NCBI RefSeq assembly: GCF_041022165.1
Contig: NZ_CP163302.1
Coordinates: forward strand, 62,001-126,000
Source: Sinomonas sp. P10A9
Lineage (GTDB): Bacteria; Actinomycetota; Actinomycetes; Actinomycetales; Micrococcaceae
DNA length: 64,000 bases
Reading direction: 5' to 3'
The stretch's first letter is position 1, and every line of letters starts with the position of its first letter. The notes below the pieces were generated by a model. The model saw nothing but the letters and a program-made list of their open reading frames with translations. It ran no database searches and had not been told where the DNA came from. Shown piece by piece: positions 57,799 to 64,000 of this stretch. A program made the position numbers and the translations under genes.

Positions 57799-58476
57799 TC
57801 AGTCGGAGAGTCGCCGCCCGATCACGCTCTCCTCGAACCCCTCCAGGAGCTCCCGCGGCGCGGGAAAGACCTCGACGGCCCCGGCATCCCGGAGCTCCGC
57901 CTCACTGTAGCCGCCGGACGCCAGCCCCACAGTCGGAATGTCCAGTGCGGCAGCGGCCTGGACGTCCCACACCGCGTCGCCCACGAACAGCACCTCGGAC
58001 GCCTCGAGTCCGCCGGCCTCCAGCGCCGCGATGAGGATGTCCGGCGCCGGCTTGGACTCCTCCGCGTCCGCGGAGCTGGTCGCAGCATCGATGAGACCGT
58101 CGGCGCCGATCACCGAGCGCAGCACCTCGAGGTCCTGCTGCCGGGCCGAGGACGCCAGCACCACCGTGAGCCCCTGTGCCTTGCAGCGCTCGAGGAGTCC
58201 CCGTGCGCCGTCGAACGGGCGCAGATGCGGCCAGAACGTTGAGAACACTGCACCGTGCGTGTCCAGGATCTGGGTGTCCTGGGACGAGTCCCGGCCGGGG
58301 CCAAGGAGACGTTCGACAATCTTCTGCCCGCCCATCCCGACCAGCCTGTGGATCTCGTTCATCCGCACGTCGTGCCCCAAGCGGCGGAAGCCATACCACC
58401 ACGCGAGCGTGTGGAAGTAGGTCGAATCGACGAGCGTGCCGTCCACGTCGAACAGGACTCCCCGAAGCCGCGTCAT
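57799..58476 (-). CDS. HAD family hydrolase
   Basis: This 225-residue phosphatase of the beta-phosphoglucomutase-like HAD group has DVDGTLVDSTYFH (residues 10-22, nucleophile D10 and D12), LASSARQQDLE near 107 (motif II), KPAPDILIAALE near 142 (motif III lysine), and VGDAVWDVQAAAA near 163 (motif IV aspartates). The acidic insertion between is the cap domain (about 20-85). It is full-length, while a near-identical paralogue at 62354-62881 is cut off after motif IV. The substrate is an unknown phosphomonoester. Confidence 0.9.
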   Translation of the reverse strand: MTRLRGVLFDVDGTLVDSTYFHTLAWWYGFRRLGHDVRMNEIHRLVGMGGQKIVERLLGPGRDSSQDTQILDTHGAVFSTFWPHLRPFDGARGLLERCKAQGLTVVLASSARQQDLEVLRSVIGADGLIDAATSSADAEESKPAPDILIAALEAGGLEASEVLFVGDAVWDVQAAAALDIPTVGLASGGYSEAELRDAGAVEVFPAPRELLEGFEESVIGRRLSD

Positions 58477-58549
58477 CTACCGCACCCGTTCACTGTTCAT
58501 GGAACGACTGCTACCCCGGACACCACTGCCTCAATCCAAGTCCCGGCGC

Positions 58550-60421
58550 TTACCCGAACGTGAAGGAGTAGAGCTCGACGCCGGCACTCGCCGTGACCTC
58601 GATGGTCCCCTCGCGCTGGGCCTGGCTGTCGTAGAGGACGTAGGAGCGAGGTGTGCCGCCGACCTCGACGGTCCGTTCGCCGTCCGGACCCTTCAGCGTG
58701 AGCGTCCCCGTCCCGCTGGCCACCGCCTGGACCTGCCGCGCATGGAAATTCAGCCGCACGGCCGGCGAGGCCGCAGCGCCGGGCGAGGCGCCGCCGTCGT
58801 TCGCGGAACCAGCGGTGATCTTCTGTGAGTCGAGGGTCCACGCGCCGGAGAGGGCAAACGAGTCCGCGGGCTGGCTGGCAGGGAAGGAGAACGTGCCCGG
58901 CCCGGAGCGGTACTGGCCCGCGCCCGAGTAGTTCACCTGCTTCGCAATGCCCAGGAACGTCTCCGGGGTGGTGCTGCCGGCCGCCGGCGCGGTGTCCTTG
59001 CCCTCGACCGGAGCAGGCAGGGCCACGCCCGGATGCGCGGCGGACAGCAACTGCCGCACGAGGTTCTCGGTGTTCTGGTAGCCGCCTTCGCCCTGCTGGA
59101 TGTGGCGGACGTTGCCGTCGGAGTCGATGAGGTATTGGGCCGGCCAGAAACGGTTCCGGTAGGCGGACCAGGTCGAGTACGCGTTGTCCATGGCTACGGG
59201 GTAGTCGATGCCGTGCTCCTTCACGCCGGCCTCGACGTTGCGCTGCTCCCGCTCGAACGCGTACTCCGGGGTGTGGACGCCGATCACCTCGAGCCCTGCT
59301 GCTTTGTAAGCGTCGTTGAGCTGGACGATGTGGGGGAGCGAGCGCTGGCAGTTGATGCACGAATAGGCCCAGAAGTCGATCAGCACCACCTTGCCGTGCA
59401 GCCCGGCGAGGGTCAGCGGGTCGGAGCCGATCCACGCCGTCTCCCCGCGGATCGCGGGCGCTGGCCCGCAGTCCTGCAGCTCCGCGGAGCCCTGGGTGCA
59501 GTTCGCGAGGCCGCGGTTCTCATCGGTGGGCGCCCCGCCGAGGTCCAGGGGCGTGCCTGCTGCGGGACGGAGCTGGTCCTGGAAGGACGCGGTGTAGTCG
59601 GGGATGAGCCGCTGGACGGCGGCGGGGAGGTCGAGGGCGAGGCCCGCCGCGAGGGCGATCATGAGCGCGCCGGCCGTGATGCGGATGCCTCGCTGGCGGC
59701 GCCGGAACGACTTGAGCCGCTCGGCAAGCCCGCGGCCGGCCAGTGCGAAGAAGAGGAGCGGCACCGAGACGCCGATCGCGAAGGCGAGCGTGAGCCCGAC
59801 CGTCTCCGGCCCGATCCGGCCCGTAGCGCCCGAGACCGTGATCGCCGCGAGGACCGGCCCGGCGCACGGCACGAACACGGCACCCAGGGCGAGGCCTAAG
59901 CCGAAGCCGCCGCGGCGCGCATCGACCTGTTTCTGCGGGATCCAGGAGAACGGCTTCTCGAGCCATTCTTCGACACGGGGCACCATGAGCCCGAGCCCCA
60001 CCGCCGCGAGCACCGCGATGCCGGTCCAGCGCAGCACGTCCTGGGGGAGCCCGAGGGTCGAGAGCAGCAGCGAGCCGAGGAGCGTGACCGCGCTGAAGCT
60101 CAGCACGAGCCCCGCGATCACCTGGTAGGGCCGCCACCGCGACGCCGCCCGCGCCGGCTGTGCCGCCTGTGCGCCGAGGTCACCGCGTGTGGCGCCGAGG
60201 TCACCGCGTGTGGCGCCGAGGTCACCCCGCGTGCGCTCGAGGTCACCCCGTGCGGCGCCGAGGTCACCCCGTGCGGCCACCGAAACCGGGGCGGACGACG
60301 GCGCCGCTCGGCGCGCGCTGTCGAGCCCGCCCGAGAAGAAGATCACCGGTAGAACCGGCAGGATGCAGGGCGAGATGCCCGTGATGAGACCGCCCAGCAG
60401 CCCGATGAGTATGACGTCCAT
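58550..60421 (-). CDS. dipZ: DipZ-type protein: CcdA membrane domain plus thioredoxin-like domain
   Basis: This 623-residue fusion reduces extracytoplasmic disulfides. The N-terminal CcdA-like domain has GISPCILPVLPVIFFS (residues 15-30, redox Cys19) and FVPCAGPVLAAITVSG (near 166), with six to eight helices to about 275. The extracytoplasmic part has the thioredoxin motif DFWAYSCINCQRSLPHIV (CxxC near 360) and a C-terminal beta-rich DipZ domain (about 490-623). A 34-residue RGDLGAT-type repeat (51-84) sits in the loop after helix 1. A CCAATCC-N15-GCGAAC element 8 bases before the ATG predicts a leaderless, ECF-sigma-driven transcript. Confidence 0.9.
   Translation of the reverse strand: MDVILIGLLGGLITGISPCILPVLPVIFFSGGLDSARRAAPSSAPVSVAARGDLGAARGDLERTRGDLGATRGDLGATRGDLGAQAAQPARAASRWRPYQVIAGLVLSFSAVTLLGSLLLSTLGLPQDVLRWTGIAVLAAVGLGLMVPRVEEWLEKPFSWIPQKQVDARRGGFGLGLALGAVFVPCAGPVLAAITVSGATGRIGPETVGLTLAFAIGVSVPLLFFALAGRGLAERLKSFRRRQRGIRITAGALMIALAAGLALDLPAAVQRLIPDYTASFQDQLRPAAGTPLDLGGAPTDENRGLANCTQGSAELQDCGPAPAIRGETAWIGSDPLTLAGLHGKVVLIDFWAYSCINCQRSLPHIVQLNDAYKAAGLEVIGVHTPEYAFEREQRNVEAGVKEHGIDYPVAMDNAYSTWSAYRNRFWPAQYLIDSDGNVRHIQQGEGGYQNTENLVRQLLSAAHPGVALPAPVEGKDTAPAAGSTTPETFLGIAKQVNYSGAGQYRSGPGTFSFPASQPADSFALSGAWTLDSQKITAGSANDGGASPGAAASPAVRLNFHARQVQAVASGTGTLTLKGPDGERTVEVGGTPRSYVLYDSQAQREGTIEVTASAGVELYSFTFG
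60167..60271 (-). repeat. 21-bp tandem repeat encoding RGDLGAT heptads within dipZ
   Basis: Five in-frame 21-bp units encode RGDLGAA, RGDLERT, RGDLGAT, RGDLGAT and RGDLGAQ. Units 3 and 4 are nearly identical at the DNA level (plus-strand GAGGTCACCGCGTGTGGCGC). Because the period is a multiple of three, unit gain or loss keeps the frame. The array lies in the loop between CcdA helices 1 and 2. Confidence 0.85.
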
Positions 60422-60428
60422 GCCGAGG

Positions 60429-60456
60429 GTTCGCAGCGGCGGGAGGCCCGGATTGG
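60429..60456 (-). promoter_or_regulatory. ECF-sigma-type promoter of dipZ
   Basis: On the minus strand, CCAATCC (60456-60450), a 15-base spacer and GCGAAC (60434-60429) lie 8 bases before the dipZ ATG, suggesting a leaderless mRNA. The elements match those upstream of the genes at 60666 and 63790. They resemble the mycobacterial SigK consensus as I recall it (CCATCC...CCGAAT). Confidence 0.62.
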
Positions 60457-60528
60457 GGCGCCCAGAGGGCAACGGCCCGCAACGAGGCACCTGCAGGGAG
60501 TCGCGCCCCGCCGTGCCTGCATCCATGG

Positions 60529-60588
60529 CAATCCGCACCAGCATCCTGCTCCGAACGGCCCAATCCGCACTCGTGTGCCGCTCCGAAC
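60529..60588 (+). promoter_or_regulatory. Tandem ECF-sigma-type promoters of the secreted-protein operon
   Basis: Two direct 32-bp-spaced copies each contain CAATCC, 16 bases, then CCGAAC: 60529-60534/60551-60556 and 60561-60566/60583-60588. A third CCAATCC (60598-60604) has no matching -10. The copies precede the secreted-protein ATG at 60666 by 77-110 bases. The duplication is visible directly; promoter function is inferred from the match to the other two sites. Confidence 0.6.
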
Positions 60589-60665
60589 AGCAGTCGTCCA
60601 ATCCCCGCAGCGGCCGAGAGGGCTGGACGGCTGGTTGGCGGCCGCTCATCTCAAGGAAGTGCATC

Positions 60666-61313
60666 ATGAGTTCACTCATTCGCATGGCACGGCCGGCCCT
60701 TCGGGTCTGGGCTGCTGTGCTTGCGGGGCTCGCCCTCGCCTTCGGCGGTGTGGCGGCGGCGGCCTTCGCCTCCGGATCCACCGTCCTGCCGGTCTCGAGC
60801 GCTAGGACACCGGCCTGGACCAACGGGCAGACCGTGACGGTCCAGTACGCCCAGAATTTCTTCTGCGACACGAGCGTCCCCGCCTCCGCGCCTTCCGGGT
60901 GTGAGGTGGGCACTGCCGCGAACACCGGACCGGTCGCCAACGCGGACCGCTCGGTCCTGTACGTGCTCGTGCCGCTCTTCGCGAACCCGAGTCCGGCGGC
61001 GATGTGCGCCGTCGCGAGCTGCCCCAACCACCCGCTCGACATCGACCTGTCCCGGATCGCCGGGGCCCTTGGCGCGTCTCCGGGAGCCGTGGCTTCGGTG
61101 CCGCTTCCAGCGCACAGCCACATCCTTGACGGCCCTGCCGGAGGCTGGTGGCAGATCAAGGTTGTCGCGGTGACCAACCAGGCGGCCTGGGCCCAGCTCG
61201 CGGCCGGCAAGTCGGAGACCACGATGAACGCATTGATCGCCACTCCGGGCAGCGGCGTGATTGGCCCAGTGCCCACCAACCTGTACCTGTTCTTCAACGT
61301 TGTGGGGAAGTGA
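60666..61313 (+). CDS. Hypothetical secreted protein
   Basis: This 215-residue protein starts with a basic N-region and a hydrophobic helix (RVWAAVLAGLALAFGGVAAAAFASG, of which only LAGLALAFGGVAAAAF need be noted), followed by a probable signal-peptidase site (AFA-SG) near 34, so it is probably exported. The mature part is beta-rich with three or four cysteines (FFCDTSVPASAPSGCEVG; MCAVASCPNH) that could form disulfides maintained by the adjacent DipZ. AAGGAAG precedes ATG 60666. It is behind tandem ECF-type promoters and in operon with a membrane protein 5 bases downstream. Family unknown. Confidence 0.75.
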   Translation: MSSLIRMARPALRVWAAVLAGLALAFGGVAAAAFASGSTVLPVSSARTPAWTNGQTVTVQYAQNFFCDTSVPASAPSGCEVGTAANTGPVANADRSVLYVLVPLFANPSPAAMCAVASCPNHPLDIDLSRIAGALGASPGAVASVPLPAHSHILDGPAGGWWQIKVVAVTNQAAWAQLAAGKSETTMNALIATPGSGVIGPVPTNLYLFFNVVGK

Positions 61314-61318
61314 GGAGG

Positions 61319-62338
61319 GTGACCTCCCACAGCTTCCTCTCGGTAGCCCGGGTGCGCCGGTTGGCGCACCCGGGCCTCCGGGCGAGCAGCCCGCTGTCGA
61401 CGACGATGGCGCTCGCCGCGCTCGTCGCGGCAGTGGCGGGCCTGCTGCTGCCCTGGGTGACCGTATTCCACGGATTCGCGCCCTTGAACGGCATCGCGGC
61501 CGGTGGTGGCACCTACGCCGGGCTGGCCACGGCGTCCGCCCTCCTGCTCCTTGCCGCGCACCGCTACGCGTGGGCTCCGGGCCGCTGGCTCGCACTGGCT
61601 GCTGCGTCGGCCGCGGTGGCAGGCTCTCTGTGGATCGCGCGGTCCGTGGCCGACTACGCTTCGGATCCGGGCCCCGCGGCGGCGCTGGCCTCGCCCGTCC
61701 CGGGGCCCGGCCCCTGGGTGCTCGCGGCAGGCGCGGCCCTCGTCGTGGTGGCAGTCTTCCTGCCGCTTCCACAGAACTCCCGCGGCGCGGGACTTGACCG
61801 CGCGGGACTCAACGGCGCGGGACTCGCCGGAAAAGGGAGAGCAGGCCTCGGCGCGAGGCTCGGACTCGGGGCGACGGCCTTCGTGGCCGGCTGGATCCAT
61901 CTGCTCCTCGTGCCCGAGCACTGGGGAGAGTCTGCGCTGCTTGGCGCAGGCTTCCTCGGCGCAGCGATCCTGCAGCTCGCCCTCGCGATCTCGGTCGTGG
62001 AGCGCCCTGGCCATGCCGCGCACCTCACGCTCGTGGTGCTCAACGTCGCGCTCGTCGGCGTGTGGCTCTATGCGGTGTTCGTGGGGCTTCCGCTCGGAGA
62101 CGCCCACGACCACGGTGGCGCGGCTGGGTGGTCGATCGGAGCGGGAGAGCCGATCGACACAGGCGCAGTCGTGACCAAGGTGGCCGAGATAGCCGGTGCA
62201 GTGTGGGCAGGCGTGCTGATCAGCCGTCCCGTCCGGCGGCCGCATGGCGCGGGACAGCAAGTGCAACGCGCCCGCCACAGGTTTGGCGGCGCGGCAGGGC
62301 TTCGGATCGGAGCCGGATCACGGGGCGGGGCGGCCTAG
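61319..62338 (+). CDS. Hypothetical multi-pass membrane protein
   Basis: This 339-residue protein has about seven hydrophobic helices (MALAALVAAVAGLLLPWVT, ATASALLLLAAHRY, LALAAASAAVAGSLWIA, VLAAGAALVVVAVFLPL, GLGATAFVAGWIHLLLV, LQLALAISVVERP, VVLNVALVGVWLYAVFVGL). A central Gly/Ala repeat (GAGLDRAGLNGAGLAGKG) and a His-containing DAHDHGG segment follow. GTG 61319 begins right after a GGAGG; an in-frame ATG at 61406 gives the first helix directly and may be the true start. It shares the tandem ECF promoters with the preceding gene. Function unknown; a copper- or metal-related role is only a thought from the histidines. Confidence 0.72.
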   Translation: MTSHSFLSVARVRRLAHPGLRASSPLSTTMALAALVAAVAGLLLPWVTVFHGFAPLNGIAAGGGTYAGLATASALLLLAAHRYAWAPGRWLALAAASAAVAGSLWIARSVADYASDPGPAAALASPVPGPGPWVLAAGAALVVVAVFLPLPQNSRGAGLDRAGLNGAGLAGKGRAGLGARLGLGATAFVAGWIHLLLVPEHWGESALLGAGFLGAAILQLALAISVVERPGHAAHLTLVVLNVALVGVWLYAVFVGLPLGDAHDHGGAAGWSIGAGEPIDTGAVVTKVAEIAGAVWAGVLISRPVRRPHGAGQQVQRARHRFGGAAGLRIGAGSRGGAA

Positions 62339-62353
62339 CCGGTCCCGAGCTGC

Positions 62354-62881
62354 CTACCGATGAGGCACGTCCCACACGGCGTCGCCGACGAACAAGGCCT
62401 CCGAGGCTTCCAGGCCCGTGGCCTTGAGCGCCACCACGAGGATGTCCGGTGCGGGCTTGGGCTCCTCCGCGTCCGCGGAGCTCGTGGCGGCGTCCACGAA
62501 CGCGTCGGCATCGATGACCGAGCGCAGCACGCTCAGGTCCTGTTCCCGTGCCGAAGAGGCCAGGACCACGCTGAGGCCCGCGTCCTCGTACCGCGCGAGG
62601 AGGTCGCGCGCGCCGTCGAACGGCCGCAGGTGCGGCCAGAACGTCGAGAACACCGCGGCGTGGGTGTCGAGGATCTCACTGTCCTGGGCCGTGTCCCGCT
62701 CCGCACCTAGCAGGTGCTCGACGATCTTCTGCCCACCCATTCCGACACGCCGGTGGATCTCGTTCATCCGCACGTCGTGCCCGAAGCGGCGGAACGCGTA
62801 CCACCACGTGAGGGTATGGAAGTACGTGGAGTCGACGAGCGTCCCATCCACGTCGAAAAGGATTCCGCGCAATGGTGACAC
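62354..62881 (-). pseudogene. Truncated paralogue of the HAD hydrolase
   Basis: This 175-residue ORF closely matches the HAD protein at 57799-58476 from MSPLRGILFDVDGTLVDSTY through LFVGDAVWDV, then ends PHR-stop, lacking about 50 C-terminal residues. The catalytic motifs I-IV are present (DVDGT, VLASSARE, KPAPD, VGDAVWD), so it might retain partial function, but the missing C-terminal helix and strand make stable folding doubtful. It is on the same strand 4 kb from the intact copy, a duplicated then truncated gene. I judge it a probable pseudogene. Confidence 0.7.
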
Positions 62882-62948
62882 GGGCTGCCTTCCGGTCTCG
62901 GGTGCGCCCAGCCTAAGTCAGCCTCCCAGGTCCGGCTAGCCTGAGGGG

Positions 62949-63674
62949 ATGGGGTGGCACATTGGAACGTCGGGCTGGAGCTACGACCACTGGGCGGATG
63001 CCCTGTACCCGCCGGGAACGCGTCCGGGGGACCGCCTCGGGATCTACACGAGCCGCTTCTCCACGGTGGAGCTCAACGCGAGCTTCTACCGGTGGCCGCG
63101 CACGACGGCGTTCGCGAGCTGGCGTCGTCGGCTCCCCGAGGGCTTCCTCATGTCGGTCAAGGCCCCCCGCGGGCTCACCCACGCCAAGCGGCTCTACGCC
63201 CCGGAGGCCTGGTCGGAGCGCATTGCGGAGTCGTGGCACGAGCTCGGTCCGCGCCGCGGCGTGCTCCTCGTCCAGCTCTCGCCGAACCACGCCCGCGACG
63301 ACGCCCGCCTCGACTGGTTCCTCGGCGCCCTGCCGCAATGGATCCAGGTTGCCGTCGAGCTCCGCCACCCGACCTGGCACGACGCGGCGGTCTTCGACAT
63401 CCTCCGGCGCCACGGCGCGGCCTACTGCATCATGAGCGGCGCCAACCTCCCGTGCATCCTGGAGGCGACCGCCCAGACCGTCTACGTCCGCCTGCACGGG
63501 CCAGACCACGACAACCTGTACGGCGGCTCCTACTCGGACGCGGACCTCGGCTGGTGGGCCGAGCGCATCCGCGAATGGGATCGGTCCGGCCACGAGGTCT
63601 ACGCCTACTTCAACAATGACGGCGAAGGCAACGCCGTGCGCAACGCCCTCACGCTGCGTGGGATGTTGGGCTGA
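62949..63674 (+). CDS. DUF72 domain-containing protein
   Basis: This 241-residue protein belongs to the DUF72 (YecE-like) family of TIM-barrel fold proteins of unknown function. Hallmarks are GTSGWSYDHWADALYPPG (residues 6-23), YTSRFSTVELNASFYRWP (near 33-50), VKAPRGLTHAKRL (near 70), LLVQLSPNH (near 105), VAVELRHPTWH (near 134) and the C-terminal YAYFNNDGEGNAVRNA (near 218). It is full-length and monocistronic. No role is established. Confidence 0.92.
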   Translation: MGWHIGTSGWSYDHWADALYPPGTRPGDRLGIYTSRFSTVELNASFYRWPRTTAFASWRRRLPEGFLMSVKAPRGLTHAKRLYAPEAWSERIAESWHELGPRRGVLLVQLSPNHARDDARLDWFLGALPQWIQVAVELRHPTWHDAAVFDILRRHGAAYCIMSGANLPCILEATAQTVYVRLHGPDHDNLYGGSYSDADLGWWAERIREWDRSGHEVYAYFNNDGEGNAVRNALTLRGMLG

Positions 63675-63724
63675 GGTTTCGACTCCGCTCAACCATCGGG
63701 TTTGGACTGCGCCCGACAACCATC

Positions 63725-63751
63725 CAATCCGTCCCCGCGACTGCTCCGAAG
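63725..63751 (+). promoter_or_regulatory. ECF-sigma-type promoter of the fasciclin-like lipoprotein
   Basis: CAATCC (63725-63730, preceded by C), a 15-base spacer and CCGAAG (63746-63751) lie 39 bases before ATG 63790, with the same elements as the dipZ and secreted-protein promoters. A CCATCC overlaps at 63720-63725 as an alternative -35. Confidence 0.6.
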
Positions 63752-63789: not shown

Positions 63790-64000
63790 ATGAAGATCAT
63801 CCAGCGCACGTCGGCCGTCGTGGGCCTCGCGGCCCTGAGCGCCCTCGGCCTCGCCGCGTGTGGCGGGTCGACGTCGGCGGCGAGCGGCCCGTCGTCGTCC
63901 GCGCCCTCCAGCAGCTCGGCGAAGGCCGCGAGCCCGTCGGCGATGTCCACGAAGGACCCGGCAGCGAACCTCGTCGGCGCTGGCTGCGCCGACTACGCCA
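63790..64000 (+). CDS. Fasciclin-like lipoprotein, N-terminal part (runs off window)
   Basis: The visible 70 residues begin MKIIQRTSAVVGLAALSALG and reach a lipobox (LAACGG, Cys near 24), so it is a surface lipoprotein. A Ser/Ala-rich linker follows (SGPSSSAPSSSSAKAASPSA), then DPAANLVGAGCADYA, which matches the start of bacterial fasciclin (MPT70/MPT83-like) domains (LVGxGCxxYA). AAGGAG precedes ATG 63790. It has an ECF-type promoter of the same type as dipZ nearby; mycobacteria also have dipZ next to MPT83/MPT70. The rest lies beyond the window. Confidence 0.75.
   Translation, partial: MKIIQRTSAVVGLAALSALGLAACGGSTSAASGPSSSAPSSSSAKAASPSAMSTKDPAANLVGAGCADYA

What the first reader, a model, noticed from the sequence alone, without database searches (positions are those of the whole stretch)
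60429..63751. Shared ECF-sigma (SigK-like) promoter signature ties DipZ, a secreted protein and a fasciclin lipoprotein into one regulon
Four copies of CCAATCC or CAATCC followed after 15-16 bases by (C/G)CGAA(C/G) sit directly upstream of dipZ (minus strand), the secreted protein (two tandem copies) and the fasciclin-like lipoprotein. The elements were found by reading, and closely resemble the mycobacterial SigK consensus as I recall it. In mycobacteria dipZ lies between MPT83 and MPT70, SigK-controlled fasciclin proteins. Here the same gene types are within 5 kb, with a new secreted Cys-containing protein and a membrane protein that may be DipZ clients. No sigK or anti-sigma gene is in the window; it should lie just beyond 64 kb.
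Basis: partly seen in the sequence, partly recalled or inferred. Interest (0 to 1): 0.78.

Follow-up and report, generated by a model that had tools for sequence, protein, structure and literature searches.

The report
Soil-bacterium SigK regulon around MPT83 and DipZ
A soil actinobacterium (genus Sinomonas) carries the same stress switch that in tubercle bacilli controls the surface protein MPT83 and its redox partner DipZ, with matching promoter signatures in front of six transcription units, nearly all for exported or membrane proteins; it looks like a member of a known system with several new target genes.

Summary
The four sites exist as described. The pattern occurs 5 times in the window (0.03 expected) and 8 times in the 4.29 Mb genome (reversed control 0); 6 of the 8 lie within 7.6 kb. 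The predicted sigK starts 592 bases past the window end, followed by rskA and a DUF4383 gene with its own site. The fasciclin protein is MPT70/MPT83-like (E 4e-67 to MPT70). In 15 Sinomonas genomes the site, in strict or looser form, precedes fas (11 of 11), dipZ (11 of 11), sec (3 of 3), a CHRD-like gene (7 of 7) and most copies of a membrane gene "memB", also far from sigK. In 80 named SigK loci it precedes fas in 30 of 32 and rskA in 0 of 80 (random windows 2.2%).

New details: an in-frame start codon lies exactly 7 nt after the -10 in 11 of 11 dipZ and 11 of 11 examined memB genes (predicted leaderless mRNAs); fas and dipZ occur in the same 11 of 15 genomes; 97 of 98 fetched SigK relatives lack the mycobacterial cysteine pair, yet RskA is full length. 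The core system is already published. No expression data exist; that sec is a DipZ client is weak.

The parts
58550..60421 (-). dipZ: CcdA-type membrane domain + thioredoxin-like domain (CINC by reading) + C-terminal Thioredoxin_10 domain, 623 aa
   Evidence: PF02683, PF08534/PF00578, PF17991; E 7.5e-99 to Mtb DipZ 2hyx over residues 291-623
60429..60455 (-). SigK-type promoter of dipZ; start codon 7 nt after the -10 (predicted leaderless)
60529..60556 (+). SigK-type promoter, distal copy of a tandem pair 32 bp apart, upstream of sec
   Evidence: only the proximal copy in S. notoginsengisoli G010
60561..60588 (+). SigK-type promoter, proximal copy, upstream of sec
60666..61313 (+). sec: exported protein (signal sequence by reading) of unknown family, 215 aa, 4 invariant Cys
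   Evidence: no Pfam/NCBIfam; homologues; model mean pLDDT 71, no fold match
61319..62338 (+). mem: membrane protein, about 8 long helices in the model, GTG start 5 bp after the sec stop
   Evidence: no Pfam over cut-off; no significant fold match
63725..63751 (+). SigK-type promoter of fas, probably also of fas-sigK-rskA
63790..64000 (+). fas: MPT70/MPT83-like fasciclin lipoprotein (lipobox LAAC by reading), cut by the window end; the gene runs to genome position 126458, sigK follows at 126592
   Evidence: PF02469; 229 bits, E 4.4e-67 to MPT70 1nyo
58532..58559 (+). fifth pattern match, antisense over the dipZ stop codon; judged a chance match, not a part of the regulon
   Evidence: seen only in this species (G000, G011) among 15 genus genomes

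Best explanation
This is the SigK-RskA envelope regulon of a Sinomonas species. RskA holds SigK at the membrane (inferred from family). When RskA is inactivated, probably by two-step proteolysis ending with a site-2 protease (inferred), SigK directs RNA polymerase to promoters of the form CCAATCCG-N9-11-GCTCCGAA. Targets in this genome: dipZ; sec-mem; fas-sigK-rskA (positive feedback); DUF4383; memB (133161-133700); and a CHRD-like secreted protein (529594-530343). All products except SigK look exported or membrane-bound. The dipZ and memB transcripts start at or within a base or so of the start codon (inferred from the fixed 7-nt gap). DipZ would pass electrons from cytoplasmic thioredoxin to thiols outside the membrane, most likely serving the MPT83-like fasciclin protein (inferred from domains and co-occurrence).
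For: Shown here: motif statistics; sigK over the NCBIfam SigK cut-off, 266.4 vs 226 bits; RskA_C 90.6 vs 29.4; matches of fas and dipZ to MPT70 and DipZ. Genus: site upstream of fas in 11 of 11 (all strict), dipZ 11 of 11 (8 strict, 3 with TTCGAA), sec 3 of 3 (strict), CHRD 7 of 7 (4 strict incl. G010, 3 with CCGAAT or CCGAAA). Five of 5 Sinomonas genomes without fas just before sigK have the site before sigK itself (3 strict, 2 ending CCGAAT). In 80 named loci: fas 30 of 32, DUF4383 11 of 13, sigK without fas just upstream 34 of 50, sigK directly after fas 0 of 30, rskA 0 of 80, random windows 210 of 9600. Exact 7-nt gap for dipZ 11 of 11 and memB 11 of 11 examined, with diverged gap sequence. 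fas and dipZ in the same 11 of 15 genomes. A site-2 protease family gene is present.
Against: No transcript, binding or mutant data. SigK here lacks the cysteine pair that modulates Mtb SigK. In 80 loci dipZ has the site in only 3 of 6 (one miss is a remnant) and 16 of 50 sigK genes without fas have none. Only 3 of the 11 memB sites are strict. Published sigma consensus motifs predicted only 6 of 15 known Mtb sigma-sigma interactions (PMC4821874 passage), so motif matches alone are weak in general. Other ECF sigma genes may share the motif (first look: 17 candidates in this genome, not all identified). RskA_N scores below its Pfam cut-off, 23.3 vs 27.
Confidence: 0.9

Rival explanations
1. The promoters belong to a different ECF sigma factor of the same genome, and sigK is only one of its targets.
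For: Other ECF-like candidates exist (first look); ECF sigmas can cross-regulate (PMC4821874, passages).
Against: The site sits in front of sigK itself when fas is missing: 5 of 5 such Sinomonas genomes, 3 strict and 2 ending CCGAAT, and 34 of 50 named loci. SigK sites are described as highly conserved between Actinobacteria (PMC7509140, passages).
Confidence: 0.06
2. The motif is a chance or composition effect.
For: Five of 11 hits of the refined pattern (its reversed control had 1) and 3 of 8 strict hits are not at plausible regulon genes, so single hits can be chance.
Against: 0.03 expected vs 5 found in the window; reversed pattern 0 in the genome; strong tracking of orthologues.
Confidence: 0.01
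3. sec and mem are passengers of a recombined block (HAD1-dipZ-sec-mem inserted at HAD2) and have no SigK- or DipZ-related role.
For: Only 3 of 15 Sinomonas genomes, two species, have sec; HAD1 and HAD2 are 80% identical over 172 aa and HAD2 lacks the C-terminus.
Against: Both species keep a strict site 105 nt before sec, with a second copy in one. sec and mem homologues share contigs elsewhere, inferred from three equal contig lengths.
Confidence: 0.2

Closest known systems
Mycobacterial SigK-RskA regulon (sigK-rskA locus plus mpt83-dipZ-mpt70)
   Same: SigK and RskA families, MPT70/MPT83-like protein, DipZ with its own promoter (PMC9861118 passages), autoregulation
   Different: Here fas is directly upstream of sigK; a search at E <= 1e-15 found one such fas gene in this genome, so no MPT83/MPT70 pair; extra targets DUF4383, memB, CHRD, sec-mem; SigK without cysteines
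mpt83-sigK-rskA minimal cassette with SigK site, described outside mycobacteria, even in Yersinia (PMC7509140 passages)
   Same: Gene order fas-sigK-rskA and a site upstream of fas
   Different: dipZ and other transcription units joined to it by the same promoter; fixed 7-nt spacing for dipZ and memB
Cysteine-less SigK of Nocardia (PMC7509140 passages)
   Same: No C133/C183 equivalents
   Different: Most Nocardia of that paper have truncated RskA and no mpt83; the loci here keep RskA frames of 239-378 aa (80 of 80), and fas was found in 32 of 80

Membership tests
SigK (ECF sigma factor) | Sequence over the curated SigK family cut-off | tested here: met
   NF007228 266.4 vs 226 bits; E 8e-48 to Mtb SigK 4nqw
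RskA (anti-sigma-K) | Gene next to sigK with RskA C-terminal domain | tested here: met
   PF10099 90.6 vs 29.4 bits
RskA (anti-sigma-K) | RskA N-terminal anti-sigma domain | tested here: inconclusive
   PF22618 23.3 bits, below cut-off 27; helix motif HLLTGAYALNAL by eye resembles the AS19-1 consensus HTLAGAYALDAL (PMC7406223 passage)
SigK (ECF sigma factor) | Cysteine pair C133/C183 (common, not universal: 94% of ECF18, 56% of ECF19 per PMC7509140 passage) | tested here: not met
   A and V at these positions; 97 of 98 aligned SigK from the fetched loci lack the pair, the exception is L088
SigK regulon | SigK-type promoter before an MPT83-like gene | tested here: met
   11 of 11 in genus; 30 of 32 in named loci; MPT70 match
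SigK regulon | dipZ with its own SigK-type promoter | tested here: met
   11 of 11 in genus, 3 of them with TTCGAA; only 3 of 6 in the named loci
SigK regulon | Agreement with the published promoter consensus | not tested
   The source paper (Veyrier 2008, PMC2258859) is not held; the consensus is recalled only
SigK regulon | Transcription depends on SigK | not testable with these tools
   needs a mutant or in vitro transcription

The most novel reading that the evidence does not exclude
Throughout Micrococcales, SigK-RskA runs an envelope redox-repair programme without the thiol switch of mycobacterial SigK: the signal enters only through RskA, and targets include DipZ, an MPT83-type fasciclin protein that is an obligate DipZ partner, a membrane-anchored molybdopterin oxidoreductase (Arthrobacter), and new families (DUF4383, memB, sec-mem). 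dipZ and memB mRNAs are held leaderless by selection on the 7-nt promoter-to-start distance, so their translation follows a different rule from the other targets.
Probability: 0.3. Interest if true: 0.62.

Novelty: new member of a known kind. Interest (0 to 1): 0.45.

Why it matters
MPT83 and MPT70 are studied largely as antigens of tubercle bacilli, and the stimuli of SigK-RskA remain obscure (PMC9861118 passage). A soil genus with the same sigma factor family, an MPT83-like protein and DipZ, the latter two found together in this genus, offers a safe system to ask what they do. A cysteine-less SigK with full-length RskA separates the redox-switch question from the anti-sigma question. The fixed 7-nt spacing is a sharp prediction that one start-site mapping experiment can test.

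Tried and rejected
Fifth in-window match (58532) as a promoter: rejected, it overlaps the dipZ stop on the other strand and is seen only in this species. Distant strict hits: 939756 lies inside a reading frame open for about 730 nt before and 810 nt after it, 3447194 has no plausible gene start behind it (one search had looked at the wrong strand for these two and is not used for them). Refined-pattern hits at 479910, 1884471, 2829396, 3048085 and 4089036: none judged to stand at the start of an exported-protein gene; 479910 lies inside a transporter-like frame by reading. Fold comparison of sec and mem: models of middling confidence, no match with E <= 0.001 (weak claudin-like hits for mem ignored). 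sec in wider samples: 3 of 245 family genomes (all Sinomonas), 4 of 396 phylum genomes (three remote, 33-37%), 3 of 396 order genomes (one remote, 27%), so the promoter of close sec homologues outside Sinomonas could not be read. Of the remote loci, L172 has one loose match (CATCC with TCTCGAA, about 80 nt before the aligned start), L173 and L174 none; L221 was not looked at. Published consensus: paper not held. DUF4383 with sigma factor: no paper in the library. 'Sinomonas' had 0 occurrences in the 12 listed rows of 61 papers.

One search was discarded because minus-strand loci had not been turned; one search replaces it. The motif table used 45 sites and left out G011 (same species), memB of G004b, G008, G013 and G014, CHRD of G010, the distal site of sec, the sites directly before sigK, and the DUF4383 sites of G003, G012 and G013; ATCC and CGAA are fixed there by construction. 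In one search memB of G008, G013 and G014 was left out, because there memB follows DUF4383 (shortened in G008, by reading) and has no site of its own near its start; fas, CHRD and sec were measured in 10 of 11, 5 of 7 and 2 of 3 genomes. The 80 named loci include nine Sinomonas and many Curtobacterium, so they are not independent. A second weak CHRD row (G003, 47%, E 7.5e-4) was not examined.
Full report
Where it is. The window is positions 62001-126000 of a single 4.29 Mb contig. The closest named relative found is Sinomonas sp. ASV486, whose SigK is identical, so this is a Sinomonas, a member of Micrococcaceae (family and soil habitat recalled).

The observation. All four sites are present as described. 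The pattern CAATCC-N15-16-SCGAAS is found 5 times in the window; 100 shuffles give 0.03 on average and never more than 1. In the whole genome it is found 8 times and its reversed form 0 times; 6 of the 8 lie in 7.6 kb. In all 15 genomes of the genus searched the pattern is present, with 3-10 matches each; reversed matches are 0 in 12 of 15 and 1, 2 and 2 in the others, so some single hits are chance. A refined pattern gives 11 hits (reversed 1), 6 of them at 122-134 kb, including a new one before memB.

The prediction. Past the window end lie sigK (126592-127170), rskA (127163-128047) and a DUF4383 membrane gene (128154-128615) with a site at 128064-128090. SigK scores 266.4 bits against the NCBIfam SigK cut-off of 226, RskA_C 90.6 against 29.4. 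fas is MPT70/MPT83-like (229 bits, E 4.4e-67 to MPT70), and dipZ matches Mtb DipZ at E 7.5e-99 over the outer domains.

The motif across the genus. With each gene looked up in 15 genomes, the site lies upstream of fas in 11 of 11, dipZ in 11 of 11 (8 strict; G008, G013 and G014 have TTCGAA), sec in 3 of 3, and the CHRD-like gene in 7 of 7 (G002, G003, G004 and G010 strict; G014, G000 and G011 end in T or A) (G010's CHRD site is read because the locus used was cut by a contig end). CHRD here is a weak family match, 21.8 bits against a cut-off of 24.1. For memB 14 of the 15 hit rows were examined, the other being a second fragment: 11 have a site 33-55 nt before the aligned start, 3 of them strict and 8 looser; in G013 and G014 memB follows DUF4383, which carries the site, and in G008 it follows a shortened DUF4383 with a site. 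DUF4383 copies seen in the genus loci plus this genome's: 12 of 13 have a strict site, the other (G003) a CCGAAT form; DUF4383 was not searched for systematically. In several species these genes lie far from sigK, so linkage alone does not explain the sites.

The site before sigK. In the five Sinomonas genomes without fas just before sigK (G001, G007, G009, G010, G012) the site precedes sigK in all five: strict in G009, G010 and G012, ending CCGAAT in G001 and G007.

The motif beyond the genus. In 80 named SigK loci (nine of them Sinomonas), a looser form (ATCC-N15-17-NCGAA within 300 nt) precedes fas in 30 of 32, DUF4383 in 11 of 13, dipZ in 3 of 6, sigK lacking fas just upstream in 34 of 50, sigK directly after fas in 0 of 30, and rskA in 0 of 80; random windows score 210 of 9600. 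This fits one promoter for fas-sigK-rskA and feedback on sigK. In six Arthrobacter-type loci looked at, a second site after rskA precedes a large protein; one of them (L056) was scanned and has a molybdopterin oxidoreductase domain, PF00174, and the others look alike by eye. A table of 45 Sinomonas sites gives CCAATCCG, 15 or 16 nt from ATCC to NCGAA, and GCTCCGAA; letters outside the fixed ATCC and CGAA are also conserved.

Start codons. An in-frame ATG or GTG begins exactly 7 nt after the last base of the -10 in 11 of 11 dipZ and 11 of 11 examined memB genes, although the 7 bases differ (in G001 and G008 dipZ a GTG at 1 nt is also in frame). fas, CHRD and sec have 26-92 nt to their ATG; some fas and one CHRD gene also have an in-frame GTG at 1-5 nt, which their alignments do not favour. 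Genome G032, of another genus in the family, has the same 7 nt at dipZ. ECF promoters usually start some 5-8 nt after the -10 (recalled), so the dipZ and memB mRNAs should be leaderless. In a scan of 83 loci, 21 of 37 long frames starting within 14 nt of a site are at 7 nt, but many of these are Curtobacterium sites upstream of sigK.

Sensing. The Mtb SigK cysteines 133 and 183 influence its partnership with RskA (PMC7509140, passages). Here SigK has no cysteine, and 97 of 98 aligned SigK from the fetched loci lack the pair; the exception is L088, labelled Sporichthyaceae. All 80 RskA frames are 239-378 aa with starts chosen by script. The same paper reports that most cysteine-less SigK keep RskA, so this is in line with print, but it makes a thiol switch in SigK unlikely in these bacteria. 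A site-2 protease family member is present (best 151.9 bits); its identity as Rip1 was not tested.

DipZ partners. fas and dipZ are found in the same 11 of 15 genomes and missing from the same 4; equal sets by chance have odds of 1 in 1365 if kinship is ignored, so this is suggestive only. sec has four invariant cysteines in 30 aligned homologues, but G010 keeps sec and mem with only a dipZ remnant, so sec does not seem to need DipZ there.

What is known. The mpt83-sigK-rskA cassette with a SigK site, also outside Actinobacteria, and conservation of SigK sites between Actinobacteria are in print (PMC7509140, passages, citing Veyrier 2008, which I could not read). mpt83, dipZ and mpt70 each have a SigK promoter in Mtb (PMC9861118, passages). 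The mycobacterial regulon is given as ten genes at two loci (PMC10540498, passages). Hints about signals: light induces the mpt83 and mpt70 homologues in M. kansasii, though not the dipZ between them, and UV lowers RskA in a soil actinobacterium (PMC8965627, passages).

Verdict. A well supported SigK regulon, with targets beyond those named for mycobacteria in the passages read, and with a few sharp, testable features. Functional claims about sec, mem, memB and DUF4383 remain open.

Noticed in passing
window 57799-58476 and 62354-62881: Two HAD-phosphatase genes, 80% identical over 172 aa, flank dipZ-sec-mem; the second lacks about the last 50 residues, as if the block had recombined in through HAD. 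Five other Sinomonas loci show one HAD gene near DUF72.
   Followed up: partly
window 60154-60277; L009 10400-10483: 21-bp tandem repeats in the linker of dipZ and in the linker of rskA, both with a GGTCAC or GGTGAC core.
   Followed up: partly
L009 11090-11156 and relatives: The DUF4383 leader begins with an inverted repeat GGTGCGG-CCGCACC, kept in most of 12 aligned leaders and lost or altered in G007 and G013.
   Followed up: partly
window 60598-60604: A third CCAATCC after the tandem promoters of sec, without a -10 element.
   Followed up: no
L129 (G002:C1:925692): A second, short dipZ copy (about 60 matching residues) with its own SigK-type site.
   Followed up: no
L084, L092, L106 and other Curtobacterium loci: The site about 225 nt before sigK is followed at 7 nt by a GTG, perhaps a leaderless upstream frame.
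   Followed up: no
L062, L065: Records labelled Sporosarcina beigongshangi hold two Arthrobacter-like SigK loci; probably contamination or a wrong label.
   Followed up: no
sec family: The 120 best listed sec homologues are about 70-89% identical, many from metagenomes, with labels from Micrococcales to Chloroflexota, yet sec was rare in the genomes sampled: conserved and perhaps horizontally moved.
   Followed up: partly
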